Source: Bradyrhizobium prioriisuperbiae
GTDB taxonomy: Bacteria > Pseudomonadota > Alphaproteobacteria > Rhizobiales > Xanthobacteraceae
DNA length: 64,000 nt
Assembly: GCF_032397745.1 (NCBI RefSeq)
Contig: NZ_CP135921.1
Coordinates: forward strand, 2,790,001 to 2,854,000
Reading direction: 5' to 3'
Shown: positions 40,980-58,213 of the stretch, in pieces
How the letters are laid out: the number at the start of each line of letters is the position of its first letter
Numbering within the stretch: the stretch's first letter is position 1
The notes under the pieces: generated by a model
What the model was told of the DNA's origin: nothing
Database searches by the model: none
The model's input: the letters and a program-made list of their open reading frames with translations, nothing else
Program-made: the position numbers and the translations under genes

Positions 40980-41510
40980 TCAGGAAAGCCCGATTCCGCT
41001 CAATCCGATCAGGGCGCCGCCCGCCAGCACCCACAGCGGATGGATGCGGGTGGTGAGCGTGACCAGCGCGCCGGCGGCGGTGATCGCGACCAGGATCCAT
41101 TCATGGTCGGAGGCTTCCGCGATCAGCAGGGCGCTGGCGGCCACCAGGCCCACCGTCATCGGCACCAGGCCCGCCTGCACGATCCGGCGCCAGGGATGAT
41201 CCTTGAAGCGTTCCCACACCTGCATCACGATTCCGGTGAGGATGGAACTCGGGCCGAACTTCGCCAGCGATGTCACCAGCACGCCGGGCCATCCCGCCAC
41301 ATGCCAGCCCACCAGCGTCACCACCATCATGTTGGGGCCGGGCGCGGCCTGGGCCAGCGCGAACATCGCGGAGAAGTCACGGGCCGACATCCAGTGATGC
41401 ACGTCCACCACCTGGCGCTGCATTTCCGGCAGGATGGTGTTGCCGCCGCCGAACGCGAGCAGCGACAGCTGCGCGAAGATGATGGCCAGCGAGACAAGAG
41501 CCGCGGTCAT
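40980..41510 (-). CDS. Chromate transporter, single-domain subunit 2
   Basis: A 176-residue membrane protein holding one CHR domain (about six helices): FAQLSLLAFGGGNTILPEMQRQVV, then MFALAQAAPGPNMMVVTLVGW, the signatures of ChrA halves. Short ChrA proteins work in pairs of opposite topology, and the other half is encoded by the overlapping upstream gene. The ATG at 41508-41510 overlaps that gene's stop as ATGA, so they are translationally coupled. The pair exports chromate or a related oxyanion. A separate long ChrA is at 56844-58061. Confidence 0.88.
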   Translation of the reverse strand: MTAALVSLAIIFAQLSLLAFGGGNTILPEMQRQVVDVHHWMSARDFSAMFALAQAAPGPNMMVVTLVGWHVAGWPGVLVTSLAKFGPSSILTGIVMQVWERFKDHPWRRIVQAGLVPMTVGLVAASALLIAEASDHEWILVAITAAGALVTLTTRIHPLWVLAGGALIGLSGIGLS

Positions 41511-42076
41511 GTTTCCAGCCTCCAGGTGGCGAAGATGCTCAGCACCGCGAGCGTCACCATGGTCGGCAGCAGCGGCAGGCGGAATACGGCAACGGCGATG
41601 AAGCACAGCGTCGCCATCACGATGGCGACGGGGCGCTTGCGGATCGGCAGCGCGATCTTGATCGCCGTCGCAACCAGCAGCCCGGCGGCGGCGGCCGCGA
41701 GGCCGGCGAACAGATGCTGGAGGCGCGGATCGTTCTGGAAACGGTCATAGACCATGCCGAGCATGATCACGATCATCGTCGGCGCCGCGATCAATCCCAC
41801 CAGCGCTGCGAGTGCGCCGGCGAGGCCACGGAAGCGCAGCCCGATTGCCACCGAGAGATTGATGATATTGCCGCCGGGGAGAAACTGGCAGAGACCAAGC
41901 AGCTCGGTGAACTCGGCGCCGGTCAGCCAGCGCCTGTCCTCCACGATCATGCGCCGCGCCATCGGCAGCACGCCGCCGAAGCCCATCAGGCCGAGGCCTA
42001 GGAAGCCCGTGAACAGCGCGCCGACTGTCGGCGGCTCCGCTGTCGCGGTGACGGGGGTGGTGGTGGTTGCGTCCAT
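41507..42076 (-). CDS. Chromate transporter, single-domain subunit 1
   Basis: A 189-residue membrane protein with one CHR domain: LFTGFLGLGLMGFGGVLPMARRMIVEDRRWLTGAEFTELLGLCQFLPGGNIINLSVAIG. It pairs with the following 176-residue half. ATG 42074-42076 is chosen for the GGAG seven bases upstream. In proteobacteria such chr3N/chr3C pairs form one antiparallel transporter. The substrate is presumably chromate, and sulfate is a possible alternative. Confidence 0.88.
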   Translation of the reverse strand: MDATTTTPVTATAEPPTVGALFTGFLGLGLMGFGGVLPMARRMIVEDRRWLTGAEFTELLGLCQFLPGGNIINLSVAIGLRFRGLAGALAALVGLIAAPTMIVIMLGMVYDRFQNDPRLQHLFAGLAAAAAGLLVATAIKIALPIRKRPVAIVMATLCFIAVAVFRLPLLPTMVTLAVLSIFATWRLET

Positions 42077-42196
42077 GCTGTGCTCCGCCGGCCCATGATA
42101 TCGGGCGGCTGACAAATTGGTACGCCAGGCCTCAGCCTATGTCTAATATATGGATCAGACGATATTCATATCGGATGGATATGTTTGAAAGCCGCG

Positions 42197-43057: not shown

Positions 43058-43999
43058 ATGGTCGCAAAGATCTTCATCGATGGCGAAGCCGGCACCACCG
43101 GGCTGCAGATCCGCGAGCGGCTGGCCGGCCGGCGCGATATCGAGCTGCTCACCATCTCGCCCGACAAGCGCAAGGACACCGATGAGCGCAAGCGCCTGCT
43201 CAATGCGGCTGATGTCGCCATTCTCTGCCTGCCGGATGAGGCGGCGAAGGAGAGTGTGCGCCTGATCGAGAACGACACCACGCGGGTGATCGACGCCTCG
43301 ACCGCCTATCGTGTTGCCGAGGGCTGGACCTACGGTTTTGCCGAGATGGACAAGTCGCAGTCGCACGCCATCGCCACCGCCAAGCGCGTCGCCAATCCCG
43401 GCTGCTGGCCGCAGGGCGCCATCGCCACGCTGCGGCCGCTGGTCGAAGGCGGGCTGATCCCGGCGGATTTTCCGGTCACCGTGCACGGCATCTCCGGTTA
43501 TTCCGGCGGCGGTCGCACCATGATCGAGGACTACGAAAGCAAGGGCGAGGATGCCAACGAGTATCTGCCCTATGGCCTGACGCTGAAGCACAAGCACCTG
43601 CCCGAGTTGCAGGCCTATGCGAAGCTCGGCCGCGCGCCGCTGTTCACGCCTGCGGTCGGCAATTTCGCCCAGGGCATGATCGTCAGCGTGCCGCTGCAAC
43701 TGGGGCATCTCGCCCGCGTGCCGACCAGCGCGCAGTTGCATGCCGCCATCGCCGATCATCACGTTGCCATCGCCGACAGTTTTGTCGAGGTCGCGCCGCT
43801 CGGCGATCCCGCTCCGATCAATCCCGAGGCGTACAACAACACCAACCGCATGCGCCTGCATGTCTACGCCAACGACCAGACGGCCCAGGCCGTGCTGATC
43901 GCGGCCTACGACAATCTCGGCAAGGGCGCCTCGGGGGCGGCGGTGCAGAACCTCAATTTGATGCTGGGCGTGGCTGCGGATACGTCGCTCGCGGCGTGA
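43058..43999 (+). CDS. argC: N-acetyl-gamma-glutamyl-phosphate reductase, type 2
   Basis: A 313-residue NADPH-dependent reductase of the third step of arginine synthesis. The N-terminal Rossmann motif is IDGEAGTTGLQIRERL, typical of the shorter type 2 ArgC; the catalytic cysteine is Cys116 in VANPGCWPQGA. GISGYSGGGRTMIEDYE and PAVGNFAQGMIV are further signatures. The ATG at 43058 follows GAGGCGAA. It lies alone, followed by the repeat at 44020-44148, and does not form an arg operon here. Confidence 0.95.
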   Translation: MVAKIFIDGEAGTTGLQIRERLAGRRDIELLTISPDKRKDTDERKRLLNAADVAILCLPDEAAKESVRLIENDTTRVIDASTAYRVAEGWTYGFAEMDKSQSHAIATAKRVANPGCWPQGAIATLRPLVEGGLIPADFPVTVHGISGYSGGGRTMIEDYESKGEDANEYLPYGLTLKHKHLPELQAYAKLGRAPLFTPAVGNFAQGMIVSVPLQLGHLARVPTSAQLHAAIADHHVAIADSFVEVAPLGDPAPINPEAYNNTNRMRLHVYANDQTAQAVLIAAYDNLGKGASGAAVQNLNLMLGVAADTSLAA

Positions 44000-44199: not shown

Positions 44200-45102
44200 T
44201 CACCCCGTCGGCAGCCTTGCAATATCCTCACTCAGCCTTCGCACCAGTTGCCGGGCCGGCGCGCTGAGCGGACGTGCCGTTGCCGTCAGCAGGCCGATCT
44301 TCACGGTGTTGATCGCCTCGGAGGCGAAGGCGCGCCAGACCAGTTCGCCGCTTTCGATTTCCTCGAGATAGCCGAGCCGGGTGAAGAAGGCGATGCCCAT
44401 GCCGAGCCGGATGCCGCGCTTGATCATCTGGATGGAATTGGACGTGATCCGCGGCACCAGCCGGGCCCGGAACGCGGTGAACTCCGGATCGACATTGGCG
44501 GCGCGCGGCAATGGCCCGGCGGGCGTCAGCAGAGGATAGGCGGCGGCCTCCTCGAACGTGATGCTGCGCTTGCCTGCGAGCGGATGGTCGGCCGGCATGA
44601 TGACACCGATCGGGGCCGCGATTTCAGCTACGAATTGCACGGAGCGCGCGGTCCGCTCGACGAACGTAAAACCCATATCGGCGCTGCCGTCCGCCACCAG
44701 CCCTTGCACGTCCGTCGGCGAGACCGCCGAGATCGTGAAAGTGACGGCCGGAAAATCGGTGCGGAAGCGGTCGATGGTCCGTGGCAGGAAATCAACCAGC
44801 AAGGAGTCCACCGCGACGATGGCGACATGGCCGGAGCGCGCCTCCTTGAGGTCGTCGATCTCGGTCCGCACCCGATCGTAATCGTGGAACGTCGCCGTCA
44901 CATGGCGCAGCAGGAGTTCCCCCGCCGCGGTCAGGCGCATGCCACCGGGCAGGCGGTCGAACAGCGGCGTTCCCAGCTCTTCTTCCAGTTTCAGGATTTG
45001 CCGGTTGAGGGCGCTTGCCGCAACGTTCAGATGGGCTGCTGCCTTGCGGATCGATCCCAGTCGCGCCGTCTCGCGGAAATAGGCGAGGGCTGCGGCGTGC
45101 AT
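44200..45102 (-). CDS. LysR-family regulator at the end of a catabolic operon
   Basis: A 300-residue LysR protein. The winged helix covers about 1-62 (ALAYFRETARLGSIRKAAAHLNVAASALNRQILKLEEELG, then RLPGGMRLT); the effector domain runs from about 90 to 295. It is the last gene of a cluster that starts with an ABC transporter: the ferredoxin stop lies 4 bp upstream of its ATG. Being co-transcribed with its likely targets is unusual for LysR proteins, which are mostly divergent. Control of the operon at 45107-51434 and of the divergent hydrolases is the best inference. Confidence 0.88.
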   Translation of the reverse strand: MHAAALAYFRETARLGSIRKAAAHLNVAASALNRQILKLEEELGTPLFDRLPGGMRLTAAGELLLRHVTATFHDYDRVRTEIDDLKEARSGHVAIVAVDSLLVDFLPRTIDRFRTDFPAVTFTISAVSPTDVQGLVADGSADMGFTFVERTARSVQFVAEIAAPIGVIMPADHPLAGKRSITFEEAAAYPLLTPAGPLPRAANVDPEFTAFRARLVPRITSNSIQMIKRGIRLGMGIAFFTRLGYLEEIESGELVWRAFASEAINTVKIGLLTATARPLSAPARQLVRRLSEDIARLPTG

Positions 45103-45106
45103 GCCG

Positions 45107-45439
45107 TCAACCGCCTCGTACAGGCTGGGCCGCCACCAGCGGGTGATCGATCGTCCGGGTGGTCCGCGTGTCGGCGCCGCGCGGCGAGCCCAGCGCGCTC
45201 ACCGTCTCGCCGAAATAATCCCGGTTCACCGCGATCCACATCACCAGGTCCTCGGGCAGCCGGTCGTCGGCATGGATCGCCGCGACCGGACAGACGGTCT
45301 CGCACAGACCGCAGTCGATACACTCGTCGGGGTGAATGTAGAGCGTGCGCGCGCCCTCGTAAATGCAGTCCACCGGGCAGGCCGGGAGGCAGGACTTGTC
45401 CTTCACATCGATGCAGGTATCGGTGATGACATAGGGCAT
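45107..45439 (-). CDS. Seven-iron ferredoxin (FdxA type)
   Basis: A 110-residue ferredoxin with cysteines Cys9, 17, 21, 25, 40, 43, 46 and 50. Their spacing matches Azotobacter ferredoxin I: Cys9, 17 and 50 for a [3Fe-4S] cluster, and Cys21, 40, 43 and 46 for a [4Fe-4S] cluster. The motif CPVDCIYEG and the tail (DYFGETVSALGSPRGAD) are typical of FdxA proteins. It probably transfers electrons for the flavoprotein or another oxidoreductase in the same operon, which would explain its placement. It begins 3 bp after the enoyl-CoA hydratase gene. Confidence 0.93.
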   Translation of the reverse strand: MPYVITDTCIDVKDKSCLPACPVDCIYEGARTLYIHPDECIDCGLCETVCPVAAIHADDRLPEDLVMWIAVNRDYFGETVSALGSPRGADTRTTRTIDHPLVAAQPVRGG

Positions 45440-45442
45440 GGT

Positions 45443-46219
45443 TTAGCGCCCTTGCCACACCGGCTTGCGCTTTTCGACAAAGGCCCGCACGCCTTCTGTC
45501 GAATCCACCGAGTTCAGGGCTTCTACCAGGGCCGGCAGCCGCTGGGCCTGGGCTTCGGCGGCGGTCAATTGCGCGGTGCGGCGGGCGACCTGCTTGATGG
45601 CCCGGAGCGACAGCGGCGCGCAGGCCAGCACTTCTCCCAGCCAGCGATCGACCGCCGCGTCGAGGCCGGCTGACGGCACCACCTCGTTGATCAGGTCGAA
45701 GCGCAGCGCTTCGTCGGCCTTGATGCGGCGGCCGGTGAGCAGCATTCCCATCGCCGCGCGATGCGGAATCTGTCGCTGCAGCAACACCATGCCGCCGTCC
45801 AACGGCAAGCGCCCGACGCGCGCTTCCGGCAACCCGAAGGTGGCGTGATCGGCGGCCACCACCAGGTCGCAACCCAGCATTATCTCAAGTCCGCCGCCGA
45901 GTGCATGCCCGTTCACCCGCGCAATCACCGGCACGTCGAGGGTGTCGCGCAAGGCGATGCCGCCGAAGCCGCCCGGCCGCGGCATCGCCCAGTACTCCAG
46001 GCCCGATGCGCCGCTGCCGCCCTTCATGTCGGCGCCGGTGCAGAAGGCGCGCTCGCCGGCGCCGGTCAGAACGACAGCGCGGACATCGCGATTTTGCTCG
46101 ATCTCCGACCAGATCGTCTGCAATTCCCTTTCGGTCGCCTGGTCGACGGCATTCATCACCTCCGGGCGGTCGATCGTCACCCGTGCGACGTGATCGGCGA
46201 TATGGACATGAACCGGCAT
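45443..46219 (-). CDS. Enoyl-CoA hydratase/isomerase family protein
   Basis: A 258-residue crotonase-fold protein. The two oxyanion segments are FCTGADMKGGSG (residues about 59-70) and HALGGGLEIMLGCD (about 105-118). Glutamates at positions 112 and 132 (FGLPEARVG) match the two catalytic glutamates of hydratases, so genuine enoyl-CoA hydratase chemistry is possible. Its ATG overlaps the CoA-transferase stop by 1 bp (TAATG on the coding strand). Role by context: hydration of the unsaturated CoA ester formed by the transferase and flavoprotein steps. The substrate is not known. Confidence 0.92.
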   Translation of the reverse strand: MPVHVHIADHVARVTIDRPEVMNAVDQATERELQTIWSEIEQNRDVRAVVLTGAGERAFCTGADMKGGSGASGLEYWAMPRPGGFGGIALRDTLDVPVIARVNGHALGGGLEIMLGCDLVVAADHATFGLPEARVGRLPLDGGMVLLQRQIPHRAAMGMLLTGRRIKADEALRFDLINEVVPSAGLDAAVDRWLGEVLACAPLSLRAIKQVARRTAQLTAAEAQAQRLPALVEALNSVDSTEGVRAFVEKRKPVWQGR

Positions 46220-47385
46220 TATTCGGCTGCCTGGCTGGCCGCACGTCCCAGCTCGGCGCGGACCGCATCGGTGTCGCGGCCGAGCGAGGGCGGGGCGGTG
46301 CGGATTGTCACCGGCGCGTCCGACATATGGATCGGCGAGCCGATCACCTTGATACGTTCGATGTCGCCGTCGGCCTCGATGATCATCTCGTTGATGGCGG
46401 TCTGCTCGTCGGCCAGCGCTTCGGCGAGGGAGCGCACCGGCGCGCACAGCAAATCCTGTTCTTCCAGCCGCGCCAGCCAGTGCGCCATGGTGCCGGACTT
46501 GAAACGCTCCTTGAAGATCGCCTGCAGGGCCGGCTTGTTCGCCACCTGATTTTCGAAGCTGGCAAAGCGCGGGTCCTTGCCGAGATGATCGAGACCCAGC
46601 GCCTTGGAGATGTCGCCGAGCGGATCGGCCTTGAAGGCGCCGACCATCACCAGCGCGCCGTCCGAGGTCGGGAACACGCCGGACAGCGGCATCGCGCCCC
46701 AGTTCACCTCGCGCCCGCGCATCAGGTGCGCAGCCGCCTCCTGGGTCTGCGCTGCCAGCATGGAATCCAGCAGCGACACCGCGATGCGCTGGCCGCGTCC
46801 GGTTTTCTCCCGCTGCAGAATCGCCAGCAGCACGCCCTGCACCATGTGCATGCCCGCGGAGTAGTCGGCGAAGGTGGTTGCCAGCACCGCGAGCGGATCG
46901 CTCTCGTTGGAGCGCCGGTACAGCACGCCACTCATCGCCTGCGCCAGCACGTCCTGGCCGCCCTTGTGGCTGTTGGGGCCGGTGAGGCCGAAGCCGGTGC
47001 CGACCGCATAGATGAGCCGTGGATTGATCTTGATAAGATCTTCGTAGCCGAAGCCGAGCCGTTCCATCACACCGGAGCGGAAATTGTTGACCACCACGTC
47101 GGAGCGCCGCACCAGGCCGAGCACCACCTCGCGGTCGTCCGGTTTGCGCAGGTCGAGCACGATCGAGCGCTTGTTGCGATTGAGCGAACAGAACACCGGG
47201 CCGAGCAGGCCGGCCGGATCGTTCGGGAACGCGGTGCGCGACAGGTCGCCGGTGCCGGGCTTCTCGATCTTGATCACGTCGGCGCCGTAGTCCGCCAGCA
47301 TCTGGGTGGCCACGGGCCCCATCATCACCTGGGTGAAATCGATGACCCGAATGCCGGCAAGCGGCAGGGTTGTGGTCTCGGTCAC
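46219..47385 (-). CDS. Family III CoA-transferase (CaiB/BaiF)
   Basis: A 388-residue CoA-transferase of the CaiB/BaiF type, which moves CoA between carboxylic acids. The N-terminal Rossmann segment is GIRVIDFTQVMMGPVATQMLADYGADVIKIEKPG, and the catalytic aspartate is Asp174 in TFADYSAGMHM. SGVFPTSDGALVMVGAF and the C-terminal CAPVRSLAEALAD segment are further signatures. The start is GTG (47383-47385), overlapping the flavoprotein stop as GTGA; residues upstream in the same frame lack homology. By context it activates the acid product of the operon's pathway. Confidence 0.93.
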   Translation of the reverse strand: MTETTTLPLAGIRVIDFTQVMMGPVATQMLADYGADVIKIEKPGTGDLSRTAFPNDPAGLLGPVFCSLNRNKRSIVLDLRKPDDREVVLGLVRRSDVVVNNFRSGVMERLGFGYEDLIKINPRLIYAVGTGFGLTGPNSHKGGQDVLAQAMSGVLYRRSNESDPLAVLATTFADYSAGMHMVQGVLLAILQREKTGRGQRIAVSLLDSMLAAQTQEAAAHLMRGREVNWGAMPLSGVFPTSDGALVMVGAFKADPLGDISKALGLDHLGKDPRFASFENQVANKPALQAIFKERFKSGTMAHWLARLEEQDLLCAPVRSLAEALADEQTAINEMIIEADGDIERIKVIGSPIHMSDAPVTIRTAPPSLGRDTDAVRAELGRAASQAAE

Positions 47386-48743
47386 GCGGCATTCTCCATG
47401 ATTTTGGCATTGGCGGACGGGCGGTCTCCGGGATCGCCGCCCTGGGCCCGAACTTTGGCGCAGATGGCCGCGGGCGAGACCGCGCGCGGGGAAATGTTGG
47501 ACGCGACCGCGAGCGCGGCCGCGACGCCGGCGGATTGCCCCATCGACATGCACGGTGGAATCTCGCGCGACATTTTTTGCGCCGACTCCGTCGCGGAGTA
47601 GTGTCGGCCGGCCACCACCATGCCCTCGATCGCCTTCGGCAGCATGGACCGGTAGGGCGTGTAATAGTCGCGCCCGCGCGCCACCGTATCGGGGAAATGC
47701 ACGCGGTCCTGCACGTCGTCCTTGGTGACGACATAGTCGCCGTCGAGCAGCCGGGTCTGGCGCACGCCGAGCTGCGGTGCGACATCGATGACAAAGCAAG
47801 ATTCGAAGCCCGGCATGTTGGCACGGACATAATCGACCAGCGCATAGATGCGCTTGCGTCCCTCGAAATCGGCCTTGGTGATGTCCTCGACCGACAGGCC
47901 ATCGAGGCCGGTCATGTGCGGGCAGTTGCACCAGACCACGCCGGGCAGCGGCGTCTTCAGCCACCACAGGTCCCAGGAGCCGCCCATCACCCGCTTTGCC
48001 TGCCGATCGAGCAGCGCGTATTTTTCCGGCTCCTCAAATCGAAACCGCTCGGCCGCTTCGGTGTCGACGCCGCCCAGGCGAAACACGGTCGTGAGGATGT
48101 AGGAGCCGTGGATGAAGGATGAGCCTGCGGCGGCGGCAACGTCGAGATCGCCGGTCGCATCGATGATCACGTCGCCCAAAATCGCCTGGCGGCCGGCCTT
48201 GGTTTCGCAGACCACACCGGTGATGCGGTTGCCGTCCATCACCGCGCGCGAGAACCAGGAGTGCAGCCGCACGTCGACGCCGGCCTCCGCGATCATGTCG
48301 TTGGAGACCCGTTTCCAGCCGTCCGGATCGAACGCTGCCGCCATCACGATCGGTGCCGGCTTGCTCTGCGCGCGGAAGTCGAATGCGCCCCAGCGCGCCC
48401 ATTTGCGAAACAGCTCCCAGCTCTGTCCGCGCTCGTCCGGCGGCGGGTAGACGCAGGCACCAATGGCGGCCATCCGGTCGATCATCTCGGTGCAGATGCC
48501 GGTGGTGGTGACTTCCTGGCCGTTGTGCATGTCGTCGAGCACCAGCACCATGCCGCCTGAGGCGAGGCCCCCGAGATAGGGGTAACGCTCGATCAGCGTG
48601 ACGGACGCGCCTTCGCGCCGCGCGGCGACTGCCGCCGAAAATCCGGCCGGCCCGCCGCCGACCACCACCACGTCGGATCGGGCGACTACCGTCGCTTCGT
48701 CCGGCTTGTCCATGATGCGCGTGGGTGTCTTGTCTCTTAACAT
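47382..48743 (-). CDS. FAD-dependent oxidoreductase (FAD_oxidored type)
   Basis: A 453-residue flavoprotein. The dinucleotide-binding motif is SDVVVVGGGPAGFSAAVAARREG, with Gly29, 31 and 34 and the ribose-binding Glu52 in LIERYPYLGG; the C-terminal FAD segment MVVAGRHYSATESAQKMSREIPPCMSMGQSAGVAAALAV is the signature of the FAD-dependent oxidoreductase group PF12831, whose members often act on unusual small molecules. Its electron acceptor may be the ferredoxin of the operon. ATG 48741-48743 follows GGGAG; an upstream frame extension is not part of the fold. The permease gene ends 20 bp before it. Confidence 0.88.
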   Translation of the reverse strand: MLRDKTPTRIMDKPDEATVVARSDVVVVGGGPAGFSAAVAARREGASVTLIERYPYLGGLASGGMVLVLDDMHNGQEVTTTGICTEMIDRMAAIGACVYPPPDERGQSWELFRKWARWGAFDFRAQSKPAPIVMAAAFDPDGWKRVSNDMIAEAGVDVRLHSWFSRAVMDGNRITGVVCETKAGRQAILGDVIIDATGDLDVAAAAGSSFIHGSYILTTVFRLGGVDTEAAERFRFEEPEKYALLDRQAKRVMGGSWDLWWLKTPLPGVVWCNCPHMTGLDGLSVEDITKADFEGRKRIYALVDYVRANMPGFESCFVIDVAPQLGVRQTRLLDGDYVVTKDDVQDRVHFPDTVARGRDYYTPYRSMLPKAIEGMVVAGRHYSATESAQKMSREIPPCMSMGQSAGVAAALAVASNISPRAVSPAAICAKVRAQGGDPGDRPSANAKIMENAA

Positions 48744-48763
48744 GGGTCGCTCCCGGGAATTTC

Positions 48764-49594
48764 CTAGTGAGAGTTGGCCGGCTGCCAGCGCACGACCAGA
48801 CGTTCGATGGTGGCGATGGTGACGAAGAACAGCACGGAGAATGCCGAACCCATCAGCACGGTGGCGTAGAGCATCGCCGAATCGAAATTGTAGGTGGACT
48901 GGATGATCAGCGCGCCGATGCCGGTGGTGGAGCCGATCCATTCGCCGACAATGGCGCCGATCACGGCGGTGGAGGCCGCGATCTTCAGCGCCGAGAACAG
49001 ATACGGCAGCGAGTTGCGCAGCCGCAGCTTGAAGAACACCTCGCGCTTGCTGGCCGACAGCACCCGCATCAGCTCCATCGCCTGCGGGTTCACCGATTCC
49101 AGTCCCCGCACCATGTTGACCAATGTTGGGAAGAAGCAGATCAGGGCCGCGATCGCGATCTTCGGCTCCATGCCGTTGCCGAGCAGCAGCACCAGGATCG
49201 GGGCCTTGGCCACCACGGGAATGGTATTGACCACCACCACCACCGGGAAGAACGCCTCTTCCATCGCCTTGCTGTGCACGAACACGGTGGCGATCACGAT
49301 CGCGGTGAGGTTGCCGAGCAGAAAGCCGGAGAACGCCTCGATCGCGGTCGGCAGCAGGTTTGCCAGCAGCACGTCGAACCGGCTCATCAGGGTCGACAGC
49401 ACCAGTTGTGGCGAGGGCGCGACATACACCGGCACATTGAAGATTTTGATCACAAGGGCCCAGAGCAGCAGCGCCGAGGCGATGCCGATCACCGGCAGCA
49501 GCCGCCGGCGCCAGATCAGGCGTTGCCGCTGGGCGCGATGCGCCTCTTCAGCTGCGGCGAGGCCATGGTCGAAGTTAAGATCGACTGTTGTCAT
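48764..49594 (-). CDS. ABC transporter permease (nitrate/taurine/NMT1 type)
   Basis: A 276-residue inner-membrane permease with about six helices. It has the SsuC/TauC-like domain: helix GIASALLLWALVIKIF near the start, IPVVAKAPILVLLLGNGMEPKIAIAALICFFPTLVNMV, the coupling motif ELMRVLSASKREVFFKLRLRNSLPYLFSALKIAA and AVIGAIVGEWIG. Its ATG overlaps the ATPase stop by 4 bp (ATGA). It forms the importer with the next two upstream genes. Confidence 0.93.
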   Translation of the reverse strand: MTTVDLNFDHGLAAAEEAHRAQRQRLIWRRRLLPVIGIASALLLWALVIKIFNVPVYVAPSPQLVLSTLMSRFDVLLANLLPTAIEAFSGFLLGNLTAIVIATVFVHSKAMEEAFFPVVVVVNTIPVVAKAPILVLLLGNGMEPKIAIAALICFFPTLVNMVRGLESVNPQAMELMRVLSASKREVFFKLRLRNSLPYLFSALKIAASTAVIGAIVGEWIGSTTGIGALIIQSTYNFDSAMLYATVLMGSAFSVLFFVTIATIERLVVRWQPANSH

Positions 49595-50370
49595 TGGCCC
49601 CTCCCCAAAGCGTCGCGCAGACGGCCGGCCATGGCGACGAACTCGCTGCTCTCGCGAATCTTCAGGGTGCGGTCGCGCGGCAGGTCGACCCGCGCCAGTT
49701 CCGCCACCCGGCCGGGATTGGCTGCGAGCACCAGCACCTGCTCGCCGAGATAGAGCGCCTCGTAGACCGAGTGGGTGACGAACATGATGGTGGTCGCCGT
49801 CTCCTGCCAGATCCGGCGCAGCTCCTCGTTGAGACGGTCGCGGGTGATCTCGTCGAGCGCGCCGAACGGCTCGTCCATCAGCAGCAGGCGAGGGCCACCG
49901 AGCAGGGCGCGGGCGATCGAGACCCGCTGGCGCATGCCGCCAGAGAGTTCATGCGGAAAGCTGTTTTCCCAGCCGGCAAGGCCGACCAGCTTCAGAAGTT
50001 CGCGCGGCGTCGGCGAATTGGCCGGAAGCCCACGCCGGCCGCCGACCTCGAGCGGCAGTTCGACATTCTGCAGCGCGGTGCGCCACGGCAGCAGCGCCGC
50101 ATCCTGGAATACAAAGCCGAAGCTGCGCGCCGAGCGCGCCTCCTCCGGGCTCATCCCGAACACCGAGACATGGCCCGAGGACGGCGCGATCAGATCGGCG
50201 ACCACCCGCAGCAGCGTGGATTTTCCACAGCCGGAGGGGCCGAGCAGGCTGAGGAAACCACCGGGCGTCAGATCGAAGGAGACGTTCTGCAAGGCGGTGA
50301 CGGTTCGTCGTTCGGTGACGAAGCGGACCGTGACATCCTGGCAGGTCACTGCGTTCGAGGGAGGGCGCAT
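49591..50370 (-). CDS. ABC transporter ATP-binding protein (SsuB/TauB type)
   Basis: A 259-residue ABC ATPase. Walker A is LLGPSGCGKSTLL (residues about 43-55), the Q-loop FVFQDAALLPW, the signature ELSGGMRQRVSIARAL, Walker B LLLMDEPFGALDEI, and the switch histidine is in FVTHSVYEALYL. The protein belongs to the subfamily serving nitrate, sulfonate, taurine and pyrimidine-precursor importers. It lies between the binding-protein gene (56 bp upstream) and the permease gene (4-bp overlap). Confidence 0.94.
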   Translation of the reverse strand: MRPPSNAVTCQDVTVRFVTERRTVTALQNVSFDLTPGGFLSLLGPSGCGKSTLLRVVADLIAPSSGHVSVFGMSPEEARSARSFGFVFQDAALLPWRTALQNVELPLEVGGRRGLPANSPTPRELLKLVGLAGWENSFPHELSGGMRQRVSIARALLGGPRLLLMDEPFGALDEITRDRLNEELRRIWQETATTIMFVTHSVYEALYLGEQVLVLAANPGRVAELARVDLPRDRTLKIRESSEFVAMAGRLRDALGRGQ

Positions 50371-50426
50371 GGGCGCAAACCTTTGTGGACGAAGCGGTTA
50401 TCAACGATGACGAGGGGCGCGGGCGA

Positions 50427-51434
50427 TCAGCCGATCTTCACGCGCTGCTCGGCGGTCTGTTTGAGGATGTCGAGGCTCATCACCTCGTCGAGCTTCGGCG
50501 TCTTGCGCGTGAACTGGCCGAGCTGCGCATAGAGATCGATCTGCTCCTGCCAGATTTGCGGATCCATCGTGCCCCAGCCTTCGGCCTTGGTGCGGTCGGA
50601 GAATGCATAATCGAGCATGACATCGAGCGCGACGCGTTCGTCCGCTTTGACCAGATTGGGGAATTCCTTCACCAGCAGGTCGACCGCGGTTTCGCGGTTG
50701 GCGTGGGCATAGGCCCAGCCCTTGGAGCTCGCGCGCAGGAATTTCGCCAGCAGGTCGCCCTTCTTCTGGACGGTGTCCGCGGTCGCATAATAGGGCAGGG
50801 CATAGAGGCGCACGCCGGCATCCCACAGCCGCAGATCCACGCGATCTGGCCCCAGCACCTTCAGCGCGGTGGTGTTGGTCAGCCAGCCGGTGACGACATC
50901 GACCTGGCCGGTGAGCAGCGGCGCCATGTCGGCGCCAATGGTGACGACCTGCACCTCGCGCTCGGGGATCTTGTTTTTGGCGAGCAGCGCGCGCAACAGG
51001 ATGACGCCGGTCGCCTGGATGCCGACCTTCTTGCCGATGAAATCGGCCGGTTTCGTCACCGGGTTCTTCTTCAGCGAAAAGAATGTGTAGGGATGCATCT
51101 GCGCGCCGGCGGCGAAGCAGCGTACGGGAATGTCCTGCGATGCGGCGAGCATCAATGAGGGGCTCGACGTCGCTTGCCCGAGCTCGAAACGGCCCGAGGC
51201 CACCACCGCGACGCCGTCGATATTGGGGCCGCCGGCCTGCAGCTTCAGTTCGATGCCTTCGGCCTCGTAATAGCCAAGGTGCTTGGCGCAAATCTCGCCG
51301 ATCTGGTTGCCGGACGGCAGCCAGCCGATCTGCAGGTTCAGCACTGGCCGGCCCTGTGCATGGGCGCCGGTGATCCCGATGCAGGTGCCTGCCGCAGCCG
51401 ACGTTATCAGGAAACGTCTGCGATCAATCATCAT
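50427..51434 (-). CDS. ABC transporter substrate-binding protein (NMT1/THI5-like), Tat signal
   Basis: A 335-residue periplasmic binding protein of the NMT1/SsuA-like family. The signal carries a twin-arginine motif, DRRRFLITSAAAG, and is followed by the mature strand LNLQIGWLPSGNQIGEICAKHLGYYEAEGIELKLQAG. ATGVILLRALLAKNKIPEREVQVV and the QVDVVTGWLTNTTAL blocks are typical. Relatives bind sulfonates, nitrate, riboflavin precursors, or pyrimidines such as the thiamine precursor HMP; the ligand here is unknown. ATG 51432-51434 follows AGGAG; a second ATG comes directly after. It is the first gene of the operon. Confidence 0.92.
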   Translation of the reverse strand: MMIDRRRFLITSAAAGTCIGITGAHAQGRPVLNLQIGWLPSGNQIGEICAKHLGYYEAEGIELKLQAGGPNIDGVAVVASGRFELGQATSSPSLMLAASQDIPVRCFAAGAQMHPYTFFSLKKNPVTKPADFIGKKVGIQATGVILLRALLAKNKIPEREVQVVTIGADMAPLLTGQVDVVTGWLTNTTALKVLGPDRVDLRLWDAGVRLYALPYYATADTVQKKGDLLAKFLRASSKGWAYAHANRETAVDLLVKEFPNLVKADERVALDVMLDYAFSDRTKAEGWGTMDPQIWQEQIDLYAQLGQFTRKTPKLDEVMSLDILKQTAEQRVKIG

Positions 51435-51468: not shown

Positions 51469-51592
51469 TTCCCGGCAGGGACCGCTATAAGGCCACGACA
51501 ACGCAGTGCCGGGAAGATCAAAGAATCGACGAGGGCGTACGAAAAAACAGCACGCCTGAATCGGGTCGGGAATGGCTTCACTTCCAGCCATT
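51469..51592. promoter_or_regulatory. Two inverted repeats in the divergent promoter region
   Basis: The 205-bp gap between the binding-protein gene and the amidohydrolase gene holds two dyads. TTCCCGGCA (51469-51477) pairs with TGCCGGGAA (51507-51515) over 29 bp. AATGGCT (51571-51577) pairs with AGCCATT (51586-51592) over 8 bp. Both are candidates for the LysR regulator encoded at 44200-45102 or another factor. The dyads are seen directly; their roles are inferred from the divergent position. Confidence 0.5.
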
Positions 51593-51639: not shown

Positions 51640-52872
51640 ATGGCTGTTGTGCTTACTCACGCGACGATCGCGACCGTCGATGTCGACGACCGCGTGCTGA
51701 CCGACAGCGATATTCGCATCGAGGGATCGTCGATCACAGCGATCGGCGCCGGCGGCACGCTGGCGGCGCTGGCGGATACGATCATCGACTGTACCAGCGG
51801 ATTGGTGCTGCCCGGTTTCGTCAACACTCACACCCACGCAACATTGGCGCTGTTCCGCGGTCTTGCCGACGACCGTATCAGGGCGTTCTGGCCGGAGGGC
51901 GGCTATCGCGTGCCCGGCCAGGAGCGTTTCACGACGGATGACTACCGCCGCTCGCTGACATCAGCGTGTTCGGAATTCCTGCTTAATGGCGTGACCACGA
52001 TTGCCGATCGCGTCGGCGACATGGACCTCTATGCACCGATCATCGAGGCGAGCGGGCTGCGCGCCACCGTCGGGTCCACTATCGTTGACCTAGGTGGCCC
52101 GGCCGACTGGGGACCGACCGAGCGGTTGATCGAACGCTACGGCGTCGATCCCTCGCGCTCGCGCATTGTTGCCGGCATTGCACCCCATGCGCTGGATACA
52201 TGCTCCGACGCATTGCTGGCCGAATGCGCCAAGCGCGCCCGCCGGATCGGGGCGCGGGTCTATCTGCATGTGGCGCAGTGCGAGGCGGAGATTGTTGCGA
52301 TCCGCAAGCGCGGCCATGCGGGCGCGCTCGCCTGCCTGCGCTGCGCCGGATTGACCGGGCCAGACGTGATCGCAGCTCATGCAATCTATCTCGACGCGGA
52401 CGAGCGCGACGGCTGGTGCGCCGACGGCACCGCCATCTGTCATTGTCCCGCCAGCAACCTGAAGATCGAGGCGCGGACGTTGCCGCTCGCTCGCTTTCAT
52501 GGGCGCACGCCGGTCGGACTCGGTACCGACTGGACCGCGTCGGACAACAGCATGGACATGTTCTGGGCGATGCGGCTTGCGGCGCTGGTCGGCAAGATGA
52601 CCGCCGATGATCCGACTGTGCTGACCACGCGCCAGATGCTGCGGCTCGCCACCATCGACGGCGCCCGCGTGCTCGGCATCGATCACCTTGTCGGCAGCAT
52701 CGAAGTCGGCAAGCGCGCCGACCTCATGGTGCTCGATCTCACCCAGCCCGAGATGCAGCCGCTGCACGATCCGATCTCCAACATCGTCTATTCGGCATCG
52801 CCCCGCAGCGTGCGCGATGTGCTGGTCGACGGCGTGGTCCGCGTCCGTGGCCGGAAATTGAGCGCGGGATAA
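51640..52872 (+). CDS. Amidohydrolase of the ATZ/TRZ (deaminase) family
   Basis: A 410-residue metal-dependent hydrolase. The HxH metal site is His64/His66 in NTHTHATL, further ligands are His210 (YLHVAQ), His247 (AAHAIYL) and Asp297 (GLGTDWTASDN). A family-typical N-terminal and C-terminal beta-sandwich flank the barrel; IEVGKRADLMVLDL marks the C-terminus. The residue three after His210, usually the catalytic Glu of deaminases, is Gln213, with Glu215 two residues on. The family includes chlorohydrolases and S-adenosylhomocysteine, guanine and cytosine deaminases. The next gene's ATG overlaps the stop in TAATG. Start ATG 51640 has GGAGG upstream. Confidence 0.9.
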   Translation: MAVVLTHATIATVDVDDRVLTDSDIRIEGSSITAIGAGGTLAALADTIIDCTSGLVLPGFVNTHTHATLALFRGLADDRIRAFWPEGGYRVPGQERFTTDDYRRSLTSACSEFLLNGVTTIADRVGDMDLYAPIIEASGLRATVGSTIVDLGGPADWGPTERLIERYGVDPSRSRIVAGIAPHALDTCSDALLAECAKRARRIGARVYLHVAQCEAEIVAIRKRGHAGALACLRCAGLTGPDVIAAHAIYLDADERDGWCADGTAICHCPASNLKIEARTLPLARFHGRTPVGLGTDWTASDNSMDMFWAMRLAALVGKMTADDPTVLTTRQMLRLATIDGARVLGIDHLVGSIEVGKRADLMVLDLTQPEMQPLHDPISNIVYSASPRSVRDVLVDGVVRVRGRKLSAG

Positions 52873-52976
52873 TGCGCCATGTCTTGCCCGACAAATGGGC
52901 TGGTTGCCTCTTGCCGGCTTCGGCCAAAGCGCCGACACTTTATGGGATAAGATGCGCCTCACATGGAAATCCCGCC

Positions 52977-54269
52977 TTGTCCTTTGACCTGATCATCCGC
53001 AACGCCACGCTGCCCGACGGTCGCACCGGGATCGATCTGGCTGTTACGTCCGGCCGCATCGCCGCGGTTGAGCCCGGCATCGCGGCCGAAGCCGCGATGG
53101 TGATCGACGCCGGTGGACACCTGGTGTCGCCGCCCTTCGTCGATTGTCATTTCCACATGGACGCGACCCTGTCGCTCGGATTGCCGCGGCTCAACCGCTC
53201 CGGCACGCTGCTGGAAGGCATCGCCTTGTGGGGCGAGCTCAAGCCGCTGTTGACCGCGGAAGCGGTGATCGCGCGTGCCTTGCGTTATTGCGATCTCGCG
53301 GTGGCGCAGGGGTTGCTCGCCGTCCGCAGCCATGTGGACATCTGCGACGACCGGCTGCTGGCGGTCGATGCGCTGCTTGAGGTCAAGCGCAGGGTCGCGC
53401 CCTATCTGCACCTCGAACTCGTGGCATTCCCCCAGGATGGATACTACCGCTCACCGAGCGCGGTCGAAAACCTCAGGCGCGCGCTGGACAGGGGTGTCGA
53501 GGTCGTCGGCGGCATCCCGCATTTCGAGCGCAGCATGGGCGATGGCGCGGCCTCGGTGCGCGCGCTGTGCGAACTCGCCGCTGCCCGCGGCCTGCGCGTG
53601 GATATGCACTGCGACGAGACCGACGACCCGCTGTCCCGTCACATCGAGACGCTGGCGTACGAGACGCAGCGGCTTGGACTGGCCGGCCGCGTCGCCGGCT
53701 CGCATCTCACCTCCATGCATTCCATGGACAATTATTATGTCTCCAAGCTGCTGCCGCTAATGGTGGAGGCCGGCGTTGCGGCAATAGCCAATCCGCTGAT
53801 CAACATTGTCCTTCAGGGGCGCCACGACACCTATCCCAAGCGCCGCGGCATGACCCGCGTCGCCGAGATGCGGGCCATGGGCATCGATGTCGCGTTCGGC
53901 CAGGACTGCACCATGGACCCGTGGTATTCGCTGGGGTCCGCCGACATGCTGGATGTGGCACACATGGGCCTGCATGTGGGGCAGCTCACCTCGCGCGACG
54001 CCATGCGCTGGTGTTTCGAGGCGGTTACCACGATTCCGGCGCGCATCATGGGGCTCGACGGCTATGGCCTGGAGGTCGGCTGCCATGCCGATCTCGTGGT
54101 GCTGCAGGCCGCTGATCCGATCGAAGCGGTTCGGCTGCGCGCCGCACGGCTTTGTGTGATCCGCCGCGGCCGCGTCATTGCCGAGAGCGAACCGCGCCGC
54201 ACCACGCTGGCCATCGAAGGCCGTCCGGCCGTCGTCGATGCCTCGTCCTACGCGCCGCCGGTGGGGTGA
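52977..54269 (+). CDS. Cytosine deaminase-like amidohydrolase
   Basis: A 430-residue hydrolase closely like CodA. Motifs are the metal pair His58/His60 (VDCHFHMDAT), the catalytic block MHCDETDDPLSRHIE, SHLTSMHSMDNYYVSKLL, NPLINIVLQGRHDTYPKRRGMTRV and the Asp site FGQDCTMDPWYSLG; the last reads GHD in E. coli CodA. The enzyme should remove ammonia from a pyrimidine or related ring; the exact substrate is uncertain. The start is given as TTG 52977, because it begins the conserved MSFDLIIRNATL and has GGAAA upstream. An ATG at 52872, overlapping the preceding stop as TAATG, would add 35 non-homologous residues. Confidence 0.88.
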   Translation: MSFDLIIRNATLPDGRTGIDLAVTSGRIAAVEPGIAAEAAMVIDAGGHLVSPPFVDCHFHMDATLSLGLPRLNRSGTLLEGIALWGELKPLLTAEAVIARALRYCDLAVAQGLLAVRSHVDICDDRLLAVDALLEVKRRVAPYLHLELVAFPQDGYYRSPSAVENLRRALDRGVEVVGGIPHFERSMGDGAASVRALCELAAARGLRVDMHCDETDDPLSRHIETLAYETQRLGLAGRVAGSHLTSMHSMDNYYVSKLLPLMVEAGVAAIANPLINIVLQGRHDTYPKRRGMTRVAEMRAMGIDVAFGQDCTMDPWYSLGSADMLDVAHMGLHVGQLTSRDAMRWCFEAVTTIPARIMGLDGYGLEVGCHADLVVLQAADPIEAVRLRAARLCVIRRGRVIAESEPRRTTLAIEGRPAVVDASSYAPPVG

Positions 54270-54270
54270 G

Positions 54271-55215
54271 CTATCGTCCCGGCAGATACGCCTTGGCCAG
54301 TACGCAATGCACGCCCTTGTTGTCGTCGACCATTTGCGTGACGCGCAGGTCGGCGACCAGTGAGCACAGCGTGTAGGCATCCTGGGCGGAGAGGCCGGAT
54401 GCGTCCGTGATCAGCCTGATCATGTCGCGCAGGGCCTGCTTGGCGGCATCGTCGAGATCCTGATTGAAGCCCATGGTGATCCAGGCCTCCGGCGTCTCCG
54501 CCCGCGGTGTGGTCAGGCTCATGTCCTTGCGCAGATGGAATTCGAACGTGCCGGTGAGCGCGGTCTCGATCGCGGTGAGGCACACCTCGCCGTCGCCTTG
54601 CAGGCCATGGCCGTCGCCGGCGGAAAACAGCGCGCCGGGAACGAACACCGGGAAATAGGTGGTGGTGCCGACGCCGAGCTCCTTGTTGTCCATATTGCCG
54701 CCGAATACGCGCGGCTGCACTGATGACAGCCGCCCCCACTGGCGCGCCGGTGCGACGCCAAAATTGCCGAAGAAGGGTTTCAGCGCCAGGTCCTGACCCC
54801 ACGGCAGCCGCGCGATCATCCTGTCGCGGTCGAGCGGAAAATGGATTCGCCGCAGCTCCGGAAAGTCCTCGGGCAGCGTGCCGAGAAACGGCGCCTGCAG
54901 GTTCCAGCCCCAATCCGCGCGCAAGACGATGTCGAGACATCGCACCTCCAGCACATCCCCGGGCTCGGCGCCTTCGACATGGATCGGGCCGGTGAGGAAA
55001 TGCGGACCCGGCCCACGCGGCGTCGCGGCGAACACGTCTTGTTGTCCCGGCACGAGAGCGAAACCGGAAGCCAGGCCGGGCATGTCTTCCGGCTCTCCGG
55101 ACAACGTCTCGATGGTGACACGGTCGCCCGACGCGATCCGCAGCACGGGTGAAAGCGAGCCGTCCCACAGCCCCCATTGCACGTTGCCCGGCGTGGAGGC
55201 GAGATGGTGATGCAT
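54271..55215 (-). CDS. Acetamidase/formamidase family protein
   Basis: A 314-residue amidase of the FmdA/AmdA family, which hydrolyses formamide, acetamide or similar small amides to ammonia and an acid. Signatures are GDRVTIETLSGE, the GPIHVEGAEPGDVLEVRCLDI block and GGNMDNKELGVGTTTYFPVFVPGALFSAGDGHGLQGDGEVC. It converges with the cytosine-deaminase-like gene, with one base between the stops. The context (nucleobase permease and deaminase) suggests it works on an amide freed by ring opening. Start ATG 55213-55215. Confidence 0.92.
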   Translation of the reverse strand: MHHHLASTPGNVQWGLWDGSLSPVLRIASGDRVTIETLSGEPEDMPGLASGFALVPGQQDVFAATPRGPGPHFLTGPIHVEGAEPGDVLEVRCLDIVLRADWGWNLQAPFLGTLPEDFPELRRIHFPLDRDRMIARLPWGQDLALKPFFGNFGVAPARQWGRLSSVQPRVFGGNMDNKELGVGTTTYFPVFVPGALFSAGDGHGLQGDGEVCLTAIETALTGTFEFHLRKDMSLTTPRAETPEAWITMGFNQDLDDAAKQALRDMIRLITDASGLSAQDAYTLCSLVADLRVTQMVDDNKGVHCVLAKAYLPGR

Positions 55216-55229
55216 GGCTATTCCCGGAA

Positions 55230-55310
55230 TGTAGCCCGGATCAGCGCAGCGACATCCGGGACCGAATTGACGTGCCTGACCCGGGTATCGCTGCGCTCAC
55301 CCGGGCTACA
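55230..55310. repeat. REP-like extragenic hairpin, second copy
   Basis: Two arms, the left starting TGTAGCCCGGAT and the right ending CACCCGGGCTACA, pair over about 30 nt with an internal loop. The arms match the element at 1952-2030 in arrangement, with several compensatory changes that keep pairing. It lies between the formamidase and NCS1 permease genes. Confidence 0.8.
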
Positions 55311-55328
55311 GGCTGTCTACGAGTTCTC

Positions 55329-58061: not shown

Positions 58062-58128
58062 GATCGCCGACCGATATCGGGAAACGATCACAGAGCCAAG
58101 CGCGACGGTGTGGGATGCAGCCTGATCT

Positions 58129-58176: not shown

Positions 58177-58213
58177 AGATCAATGGCTTAGCTCGAAAGG
58201 TCTTCACTACAGC
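58177..58213 (+). repeat. Left subterminal repeats of the IS
   Basis: Two motifs recur near the right end. AGATCAATGGCTTAGCTCG (58177-58195) resembles 60081-60099, and AGGTCTTCACTACAGC (58198-58213) is identical to 60030-60045. Both are in direct orientation but in swapped order. They overlap the last codons of the transposase and may be transposase-binding sites. Confidence 0.65.

What the first reader, a model, noticed from the sequence alone, without database searches (positions are those of the whole stretch)
44200..51434. Uncharacterised import-and-degradation operon with ABC importer, flavoprotein, CoA-transferase, crotonase and 7Fe ferredoxin
Eight genes on one strand are spaced by 56 bp or less, several with overlapping start and stop codons. 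The order is binding protein, ATPase, permease, FAD oxidoreductase, CoA-transferase, enoyl-CoA hydratase, ferredoxin, LysR. This combines uptake, redox chemistry and CoA-ester chemistry in one unit. It does not match a pathway I recognise. The binding-protein family takes small organic anions or heterocycles, so the substrate may be a cyclic nitrogen or sulfur compound.
Basis: partly seen in the sequence, partly recalled or inferred. Interest (0 to 1): 0.72.

Follow-up and report, generated by a model that had tools for sequence, protein, structure and literature searches.

The report
Conserved operon degrading unknown pyrimidine-like acid
A tightly packed set of bacterial genes for importing and breaking down one small molecule, kept in the same order across many soil and water bacteria and often paired with one of several interchangeable deaminases, appears to be an undescribed pathway for a nitrogen-ring compound whose identity is still unknown.

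Summary
Confirmed. Eight intact minus-strand genes at 44200-51434 (NMT1 binding protein, ATPase, permease, PF12831 flavoprotein, CaiB/BaiF CoA-transferase, crotonase, FdxA-type ferredoxin, LysR) lie -4 to 56 bp apart. In 71 of 80 related genome loci the first six keep order and strand; 8 of the other 9 are cut by contig ends. Four actinobacterial loci keep flavoprotein, transferase and crotonase but carry an MFS transporter in place of the ABC importer, tying import to the enzymes.

New: the operon is often flanked by one deaminase-type enzyme, of the CDA fold or of three amidohydrolase subfamilies, never by two of these classes (one in 53 of 98 loci, none in 45; one in 17 of 18 further loci). 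In the window the partner is the divergent gene at 51640-52872. The binding protein's best named relatives bind thiamine-type pyrimidines, and 6 of 116 loci have Rut or dihydropyrimidine genes nearby. Best reading: CoA-dependent catabolism of a carboxylated, often amino-substituted, pyrimidine-like heterocycle; substrate and step order are inferred. Against a simple feed into uracil catabolism, the window's own genome has no RutA or PreA match. No assigned pathway turned up in ten literature searches.

The parts
50427..51434 (-). Solute-binding protein, NMT1/THI5-like (PF09084), first gene of the operon
   Evidence: Pfam 154 bits; ortholog profile best hits 4nmy (ligand not named, 103 bits) and 3ix1 (FAMP-binding protein, 85 bits); THI5 (44 and 43 bits) level with a taurine-binding protein (43 bits)
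49591..50370 (-). ABC transporter ATPase
   Evidence: PF00005; nearest NCBIfam SaoA 199.6 and taurine 194.5 bits, both below cut-off
48764..49594 (-). ABC transporter permease (BPD_transp_1)
   Evidence: PF00528
47382..48743 (-). FAD-dependent oxidoreductase, PF12831 (FAD_oxidored), a well-bounded ortholog group
46219..47385 (-). CaiB/BaiF (type III) CoA-transferase, GTG start, SLLDSM motif with the presumed catalytic Asp
   Evidence: PF02515 370 bits; motif; catalytic role of the Asp recalled
45443..46219 (-). Crotonase/enoyl-CoA hydratase family enzyme with both usual catalytic glutamates (GGGLE, GLPEAR)
   Evidence: PF00378 202 bits; motifs, roles recalled; nearest NCBIfam DpgD 282.8 vs cut-off 400
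45107..45439 (-). 7Fe ferredoxin, FdxA type
   Evidence: NCBIfam FdxA_Actino 141.5 vs cut-off 125; cysteine spacing
44200..45102 (-). LysR-type regulator, last gene of the operon
   Evidence: PF00126 and PF03466; in many relatives it is instead divergent from the SBP gene
51534..51556 (-). Candidate LysR operator (imperfect palindrome, read GGCGTGCTGTTTTTTCGTACGCC on the minus strand) in the gap between SBP and Amh1
   Evidence: Position; relatives carry YGHTGCC-N5-GGCADCR before the SBP gene in 31 of 74 upstream regions against 0.08% of random pieces (pattern drawn from these same regions); the window copy is a weak variant and does not match that pattern
51640..52872 (+). Divergent TRZ/ATZ-type amidohydrolase (Amh1), predicted deaminase partner of the operon
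   Evidence: PF01979; orthologs at 59-81% next to the operon in 12 other loci and at 52-81% in 3 of 18 further loci
52872..54269 (+). Cytosine-deaminase-like amidohydrolase (Amh2), overlapping Amh1; window-specific companion
   Evidence: NCBIfam PRK07572 795 bits vs cut-off 438; at 40% identity or more within 9 kb found in 1 of 98 loci, the window itself

Best explanation
The operon is a complete catabolic unit for one small carboxylated, pyrimidine-like N-heterocycle, often bearing an exocyclic amine. Shown: one conserved gene set whose proteins diverge in step; an operator-like site before it in many relatives (weak in the window); often one deaminase-type enzyme beside it; a transporter that can be exchanged for an MFS protein. 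Inferred, in likely order: (1) the NMT1/THI5-like binding protein and ABC importer take up the compound; (2) the partner deaminase (Amh1 in the window; a CDA-fold deaminase or another amidohydrolase elsewhere) removes the ring amine; (3) the type III CoA-transferase makes the CoA thioester of the carboxyl group; (4) the PF12831 flavoprotein, with the 7Fe ferredoxin as likely electron partner, oxidises or reduces the ring or side chain; (5) the crotonase, which keeps both catalytic glutamates, adds or removes water so that the ring opens or the side chain is shortened; (6) where present, a DHDPS-family aldolase/dehydratase and an alpha-ketoglutarate-semialdehyde-like aldehyde dehydrogenase finish the carbon chain. 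The LysR protein is the likely substrate-responsive regulator. Step-by-step confidence: single unit 0.97; small-molecule catabolism 0.9; deamination step 0.75; pyrimidine-like substrate about 0.42; exact order of steps 3-5 under 0.3.
For: Unit: 71 of 80 loci keep SBP-ATPase-permease-FAD-CoAT-ECH in order and strand with median gaps of 45 bp or less; identities of the six proteins to the window copies co-vary over 71 loci, r 0.74-0.91. Transporter exchange: L090, L091, L104, L105 carry an MFS gene directly before FAD-CoAT-ECH; the L090 one is nearest to the metabolite/H+ symporter model, 284 bits, below its 443-bit cut-off. Deaminase: 53 of 98 loci hold exactly one of four deaminase classes and none holds two; among 70 loci with full flanks 40 hold one, none two, permutation mean 6.9 and 0 of 20000 as low; CDA-fold against amidohydrolase overlap 0 with 8.6 expected over 88 loci; 17 of 18 further loci hold one class. 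Zinc motifs HAE and PCxxC in all 15 CDA rows and HVAQ in all 13 Amh1 rows shown. Pyrimidine link: the SBP profile ranks 4nmy (ligand unnamed) and 3ix1 (FAMP-binding) well above the rest; RutA-D beside L100, RutC-RutD beside L071, a RutB piece and a dihydropyrimidinase beside L076; dihydropyrimidinase beside L195 and L199, PreA in L199 and a PreA end in L040; cytosine-deaminase-type gene and NCS1 permease in the window. Of 6 class-sample genomes with both cluster and PreA, 2 have them within about 15 kb, 0.04 expected. Operator. Accessory DHDPS in 23 and aldehyde dehydrogenase in 18 of 98 loci, both in 16, best dehydrogenase models alpha-KG semialdehyde/2,5-dioxovalerate dehydrogenase, below cut-off.
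Against: The window's own genome has no RutA and no PreA match at E 1e-80, so free uracil is not obviously passed on there. RutA occurs in 0 of 14 cluster-bearing class genomes, and PreA enrichment is modest (6 of 14 vs 57 of 370, p 0.016, relatedness ignored). 30 of 70 full-flank loci have no recognised deaminase nearby, the four actinobacterial loci among them. Ferredoxin is not found within 9 kb in 19 of 98 loci, some of them cut contigs. Pyrimidine-degradation genes lie beside only 6 (7 with the partial hydantoinase of L010, below cut-off) of 116 loci. In the profile search THI5 stands level with a taurine-binding protein (44.3, 42.5 vs 43.2 bits), and with the single window sequence taurine stands above THI5 (30.5 vs 20.3 bits); on rechecking this I lowered the pyrimidine odds and the overall confidence from 0.45 to 0.42. 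Loci are related, so the exclusion statistics overstate independence. Of the eight operon proteins only the ferredoxin passes an NCBIfam cut-off. NMT1 proteins are very diverse: 55 matches in this genome.
Confidence: 0.42

Rival explanations
1. Catabolism of a different amino-substituted N-heterocyclic acid (for example a pteridine, imidazole, pyridine or triazine carboxylate) by the same logic: import, deamination, CoA thioester, flavin/ferredoxin redox, crotonase ring opening.
For: The deaminase pairing fits any aromatic amine; solved relatives of Amh1 and Amh3 include SAH, 8-oxoguanine and guanine deaminases and triazine hydrolases.
Against: Does not explain the FAMP-binding protein as best named relative of the SBP or the Rut and dihydropyrimidine neighbours in several loci.
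Confidence: 0.29
2. Carnitine/betaine-like pathway: the CoA-transferase and crotonase act on a hydroxy or unsaturated short-chain acid as CaiB and CaiD do, with flavoprotein and ferredoxin in the role of FixC/FixX.
Confidence: 0.13
3. Degradation of the pyrimidine half of thiamine (HMP or its carboxylate): import by a ThiY-like system, deamination of the 4-amino group, oxidation to the 5-carboxylate and CoA-dependent ring opening.
For: Binding protein's best named relative is the FAMP-binding protein; a 4-aminopyrimidine suits the deaminases; SDR and aldehyde dehydrogenase in some clusters; the window's NCS1 permease has CytX, a putative HMP transporter, as second model hit, below cut-off.
Against: HMP has no carboxyl group and most clusters have no recognised SDR (6 of 98) or aldehyde dehydrogenase (18 of 98) nearby to make one; a 2-methylpyrimidine could not feed Rut or Pre enzymes (recalled chemistry); no thiamine-salvage gene was recognised among the recurrent neighbours (not searched for with models).
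Confidence: 0.1
4. Mixed neighbourhood: an ABC importer and an enzyme set for different substrates that merely sit side by side.
For: NMT1 importers are numerous in this genome (55 domain matches); L067 has the parts split.
Against: Order kept in 71 of 80 loci, co-varying identities, conserved operator before the whole unit in many relatives, transporter exchange in Actinomycetota.
Confidence: 0.03

Closest known systems
ThiXYZ-type HMP/FAMP importers (NMT1/THI5-like SBP)
   Same: Binding-protein family, three-part importer; best solved relatives are 4nmy (ligand unnamed) and the FAMP-binding protein 3ix1
   Different: Coupled to CoA-ester enzymes instead of thiamine salvage; ligand not known
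Carnitine cai/fix system (CaiB, CaiD, FixC, FixX)
   Same: Type III CoA-transferase plus crotonase, with a flavoprotein and a ferredoxin
   Different: Transferase and crotonase fall far below the Cai cut-offs; flavoprotein is PF12831; deaminase partner added
Rut and reductive (Pre/Pyd) pyrimidine degradation
   Same: Found beside the operon in L100, L071, L076, L195, L199, L040
   Different: Not part of the operon; RutA and PreA both without a match in the window's own genome
Furoate (Hmf) and benzoyl-CoA (Bad) ring degradation, recalled
   Same: CoA-thioester activation of a ring acid followed by crotonase-family hydration or ring opening
   Different: Different activating enzyme; no molybdenum hydroxylase or benzoyl-CoA reductase among the eight operon genes; comparison from memory

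Membership tests
NMT1/THI5-type ABC importer | NMT1 domain in the binding protein | tested here: met
   PF09084 154.4 bits vs 20.5
NMT1/THI5-type ABC importer | Adjacent ATPase and BPD permease | tested here: met
   PF00005 and PF00528
HMP/FAMP (ThiY) importer proper | Pyrimidine-binding residues and measured ligand | not testable with these tools
   Sequence similarity only; pocket residues not checked
SsuA sulfonate / TauA taurine importer | NCBIfam TIGR01728 or TIGR01729 cut-off | tested here: not met
   46.5 vs 163.5 and 32.8 vs 304.25 bits
Carnitine cai system | L-carnitine CoA-transferase PRK03525 cut-off | tested here: not met
   106.4 vs 413 bits
Carnitine cai system | Crotonobetainyl-CoA hydratase PRK03580 cut-off | tested here: not met
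   181.7 vs 500 bits
FixC/ETF-QO-like flavoprotein | Same fold and clear standing above other flavoproteins | tested here: inconclusive
FdxA 7Fe ferredoxin | NCBIfam cut-off and 7Fe cysteine spacing | tested here: met
   FdxA_Actino 141.5 vs 125; cysteines; FdxA_Protbact 95.4 vs 135 not met
Rut pyrimidine pathway | RutA in the genome | tested here: not met
   No match at E 1e-80 in G000
Reductive pyrimidine pathway | PreA in the genome | tested here: not met
   No match at E 1e-80 in G000
TRZ/ATZ deaminase (Amh1) | Amidohydrolase fold with HxH, His, Asp metal motifs | tested here: met
   PF01979; motifs HTH, HVAQ, AAH, GTD in the window protein
TRZ/ATZ deaminase (Amh1) | Passing the cut-off of a named NCBIfam deaminase (best 25 models shown) | tested here: not met
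   Best PRK06038 282 vs 609
Cytosine deaminase (Amh2) | NCBIfam PRK07572 subfamily cut-off | tested here: met
   795.3 vs 438 bits

The most novel reading that the evidence does not exclude
A CoA-thioester-based route for pyrimidine derivatives. The substrate would be a pyrimidinyl acid such as a nucleoside 5'-carboxylate: interchangeable deaminases turn the cytosine-type base (or an adenine-type one) into its oxo form, the CoA-transferase activates the pentose carboxyl group, flavoprotein and crotonase eliminate water and the base, and the five-carbon remnant leaves as alpha-ketoglutarate semialdehyde through the DHDPS-family enzyme and aldehyde dehydrogenase, while the freed base goes to Rut, Pre/Pyd or salvage. 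It would give the main accessory genes a role, but no step has been shown.
Probability: 0.08. Interest if true: 0.85.

Novelty: new variant of a known kind. Interest (0 to 1): 0.52.

Why it matters
A well-bounded flavoprotein family with a fixed operon and a rotating set of deaminases points to an undescribed degradation route for a compound common enough to be used by soil, freshwater and marine bacteria. The swap between fold-unrelated deaminases is a strong functional clue that makes the substrate class testable. If the substrate is a pyrimidine derivative, this would add CoA-thioester chemistry to pyrimidine catabolism, known so far (recalled) as reductive, oxidative and Rut routes.

Tried and rejected
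Sulfonate/taurine import: family cut-offs not met. Identifying the substrate through the flavoprotein fold: only generic flavoprotein matches. Identifying it through nearest paralogs of the binding protein in the same genome: contexts look mixed by eye (luciferase-like monooxygenase, xanthine-dehydrogenase-like, hydantoinase-like), no clear answer. Literature: ten searches; six gave no paper, the others listed 4, 1, 10 of 287, and 4 papers, none of which describes the cluster by title or abstract start. I saw search listings only, plus one passage of PMC4149787, which is about a different pRL11 gene. The library lacks most subscription papers, so this is no proof of absence. The sigma-70 promoter scan found 0 sites (1.1 expected by shuffling), and 7 terminator-like sites stood against 4.4 +/- 2.1 expected. 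Homarine, thiamine and ectoine routes were considered; homarine and ectoine have no exocyclic amine (recalled). The first clustering counted frames F8 and F14, which lie antisense to core genes, as families; I dropped them. L065 and L072 were left out of alignment A3 after one search found a stop in one of my references.
Full report
Observation. Pfam and NCBIfam confirm NMT1 binding protein, ABC ATPase, BPD permease, FAD_oxidored flavoprotein, CoA-transferase family III, crotonase, FdxA-type ferredoxin and LysR. A divergent plus-strand pair follows: a TRZ/ATZ-type amidohydrolase at 51640-52872 and an overlapping cytosine-deaminase-like gene at 52872-54269; beyond them lie an FmdA-like gene and an NCS1 permease.

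Is it one unit? The flavoprotein was used to fetch 80 genome loci, the best of 344 relatives. In 71 of 80 the genes SBP-ATPase-permease-FAD-CoAT-ECH stand in this order on one strand. Eight of the other nine (L013, L030, L052, L055, L068, L070, L083, L085) are cut by a contig end, and L067 is a real exception with a split cluster. Median gaps are 45 bp or less, and identities to the window proteins co-vary across 71 loci (r 0.74 to 0.91). Over 98 loci (80 genome loci, 17 plasmid loci, the window) ferredoxin lies within 9 kb in 79 and LysR in 85. In an even listing of 60 of 122 plasmid records the flavoprotein drops from about 60% to 33% or less identity, so it looks like a well-bounded ortholog group (62 records not listed). 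In four actinobacterial plasmid loci (L090, L091, L104, L105) the same flavoprotein, transferase and crotonase follow an MFS transporter in place of the ABC importer; the L090 protein is nearest to the metabolite/H+ symporter model, below its cut-off. This exchange links import to these enzymes.

Distribution. Orthologs are sparse: 12 of 396 other genomes of the order, 14 of 384 other genomes of the class, both at E 1e-150, 1 of 397 other genomes of the phylum at E 1e-100, and none of the 18 other genomes of the window's own family listed. Bradyrhizobium manausense (67%) and a Tardiphaga MAG (78%) carry it. This patchiness, with plasmid copies, suggests horizontal transfer (inference).

The deaminase partner. 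Clustering of neighbours and a targeted search within 9 kb found four deaminase-type classes beside the core: a CDA-fold deaminase (19 of 98 loci), Amh1 (13), Amh3 (11) and AmhRhiz (10). Exactly one class is present in 53 of 98 loci and two classes in none; 45 have none. Among 70 loci with at least 6.5 kb on both sides, 40 hold one and 30 none; permutation expects 6.9 loci with two or more, and 0 of 20000 reached 0. The three amidohydrolase classes are 23-33% identical to one another, so the strict test is CDA fold against amidohydrolase: 0 overlaps in 98 loci. As a second sample, 26 loci were taken from order and class sampling; 8 proved duplicates. Of 18 new ones 17 carry exactly one class (7 CDA, 10 amidohydrolase), and L198 none; L188 also has a 32% Amh3-like hit further away, below the threshold used. 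Pooled over 88 loci, 8.6 overlaps would be expected and none is seen. Relatedness of loci is not corrected for. The zinc motifs are present in all 15 CDA rows and the HVAQ motif in all 13 Amh1 rows shown; my patterns matched Amh3 and AmhRhiz only in part. The simplest reading is that deamination of an aromatic amine is a common, not universal, step.

Regulation. The region before the SBP gene carries a T-N11-A palindrome YGHTGCC-N5-GGCADCR in 31 of 74 loci, against 0.08% of 7137 random pieces of the same loci; the pattern was drawn from these same regions. Several others carry weaker variants. The window has only an imperfect palindrome at 51534-51556. The link to the LysR protein is inferred from the T-N11-A form (recalled).

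Substrate clues. A profile of 23 binding-protein orthologs hits 4nmy (103 bits, named only as a solute-binding protein) and the FAMP-binding protein 3ix1 (85 bits) best; THI5 (44 and 43 bits) is level with a taurine-binding protein (43 bits), followed by THI13 (38 bits) and a putative exported protein (37 bits). With the single window sequence taurine (30.5 bits) stands above THI5 (20.3 bits). Pyrimidine catabolism genes lie beside several loci: RutA, B, C, D over cut-off in L100 (AmhRhiz type); RutC and RutD over cut-off in L071 (Amh1 type); a RutB-like frame with an internal stop and a dihydropyrimidinase over cut-off in L076 (Amh3 type); dihydropyrimidinase over cut-off in L195 (Amh1) and L199 (AmhRhiz), PreA over cut-off in L199; a 168-residue PreA match at the end of L040 (Amh3) with a second NMT1 binding protein 70% identical to one in L195. 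That is 6 of 116 loci, or 7 with a partial hydantoinase in L010. PreA also lies about 11 kb from the flavoprotein in the genome of L195. Of 6 class-sample genomes holding both cluster and PreA, 2 have them within about 15 kb (0.04 expected).

Against this, the window's own genome has neither RutA nor PreA at E 1e-80, RutA is in 0 of 14 cluster-bearing class genomes, and PreA enrichment is modest (6 of 14 vs 57 of 370, p 0.016). So the pathway does not depend on these routes.

Verdict. It should be extended to the divergent deaminase and placed among N-heterocycle, most likely pyrimidine-like, degradation systems. Substrate, step order and electron partner remain open.

Noticed in passing
window 54271-56738: FmdA-like acetamidase/formamidase and an NCS1 permease in tandem next to the cytosine-deaminase-like gene; none of the three was found within 9 kb in the other 97 loci at 40% identity.
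   Followed up: partly
window 58188-59984: Transposase with a DDE_Tnp_1 domain about 4 kb beyond the amidohydrolase pair, a possible mobility mark.
   Followed up: no
window 56844-58091: Chromate-transporter-family gene (PF02417); the frames at 40980-42115 look like two halves of a similar gene (not checked with a model).
   Followed up: no
window 43058-43999: Semialdehyde-dehydrogenase-family gene (ArgC-like) just beyond the LysR end of the operon on the other strand.
   Followed up: no
L067: Only clear rearrangement among the 80 loci: flavoprotein, transferase and ferredoxin apart from an importer set with a second CoA-transferase, an SDR and a DHDPS-family gene.
   Followed up: no
L029, L034, L039: Two binding-protein matches of the same family in one cluster.
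   Followed up: no
L076:15538-16212: RutB-like frame following Amh3, broken by one in-frame stop in this MAG.
   Followed up: partly
G000 whole genome: 55 NMT1-domain matches in one genome.
   Followed up: partly
L151:2230-6608: In the window's own genome another NMT1 binding protein stands with what looks by eye like a hydantoinase-type amidohydrolase, an SDR and a LysR gene, a possible sister system.
   Followed up: no
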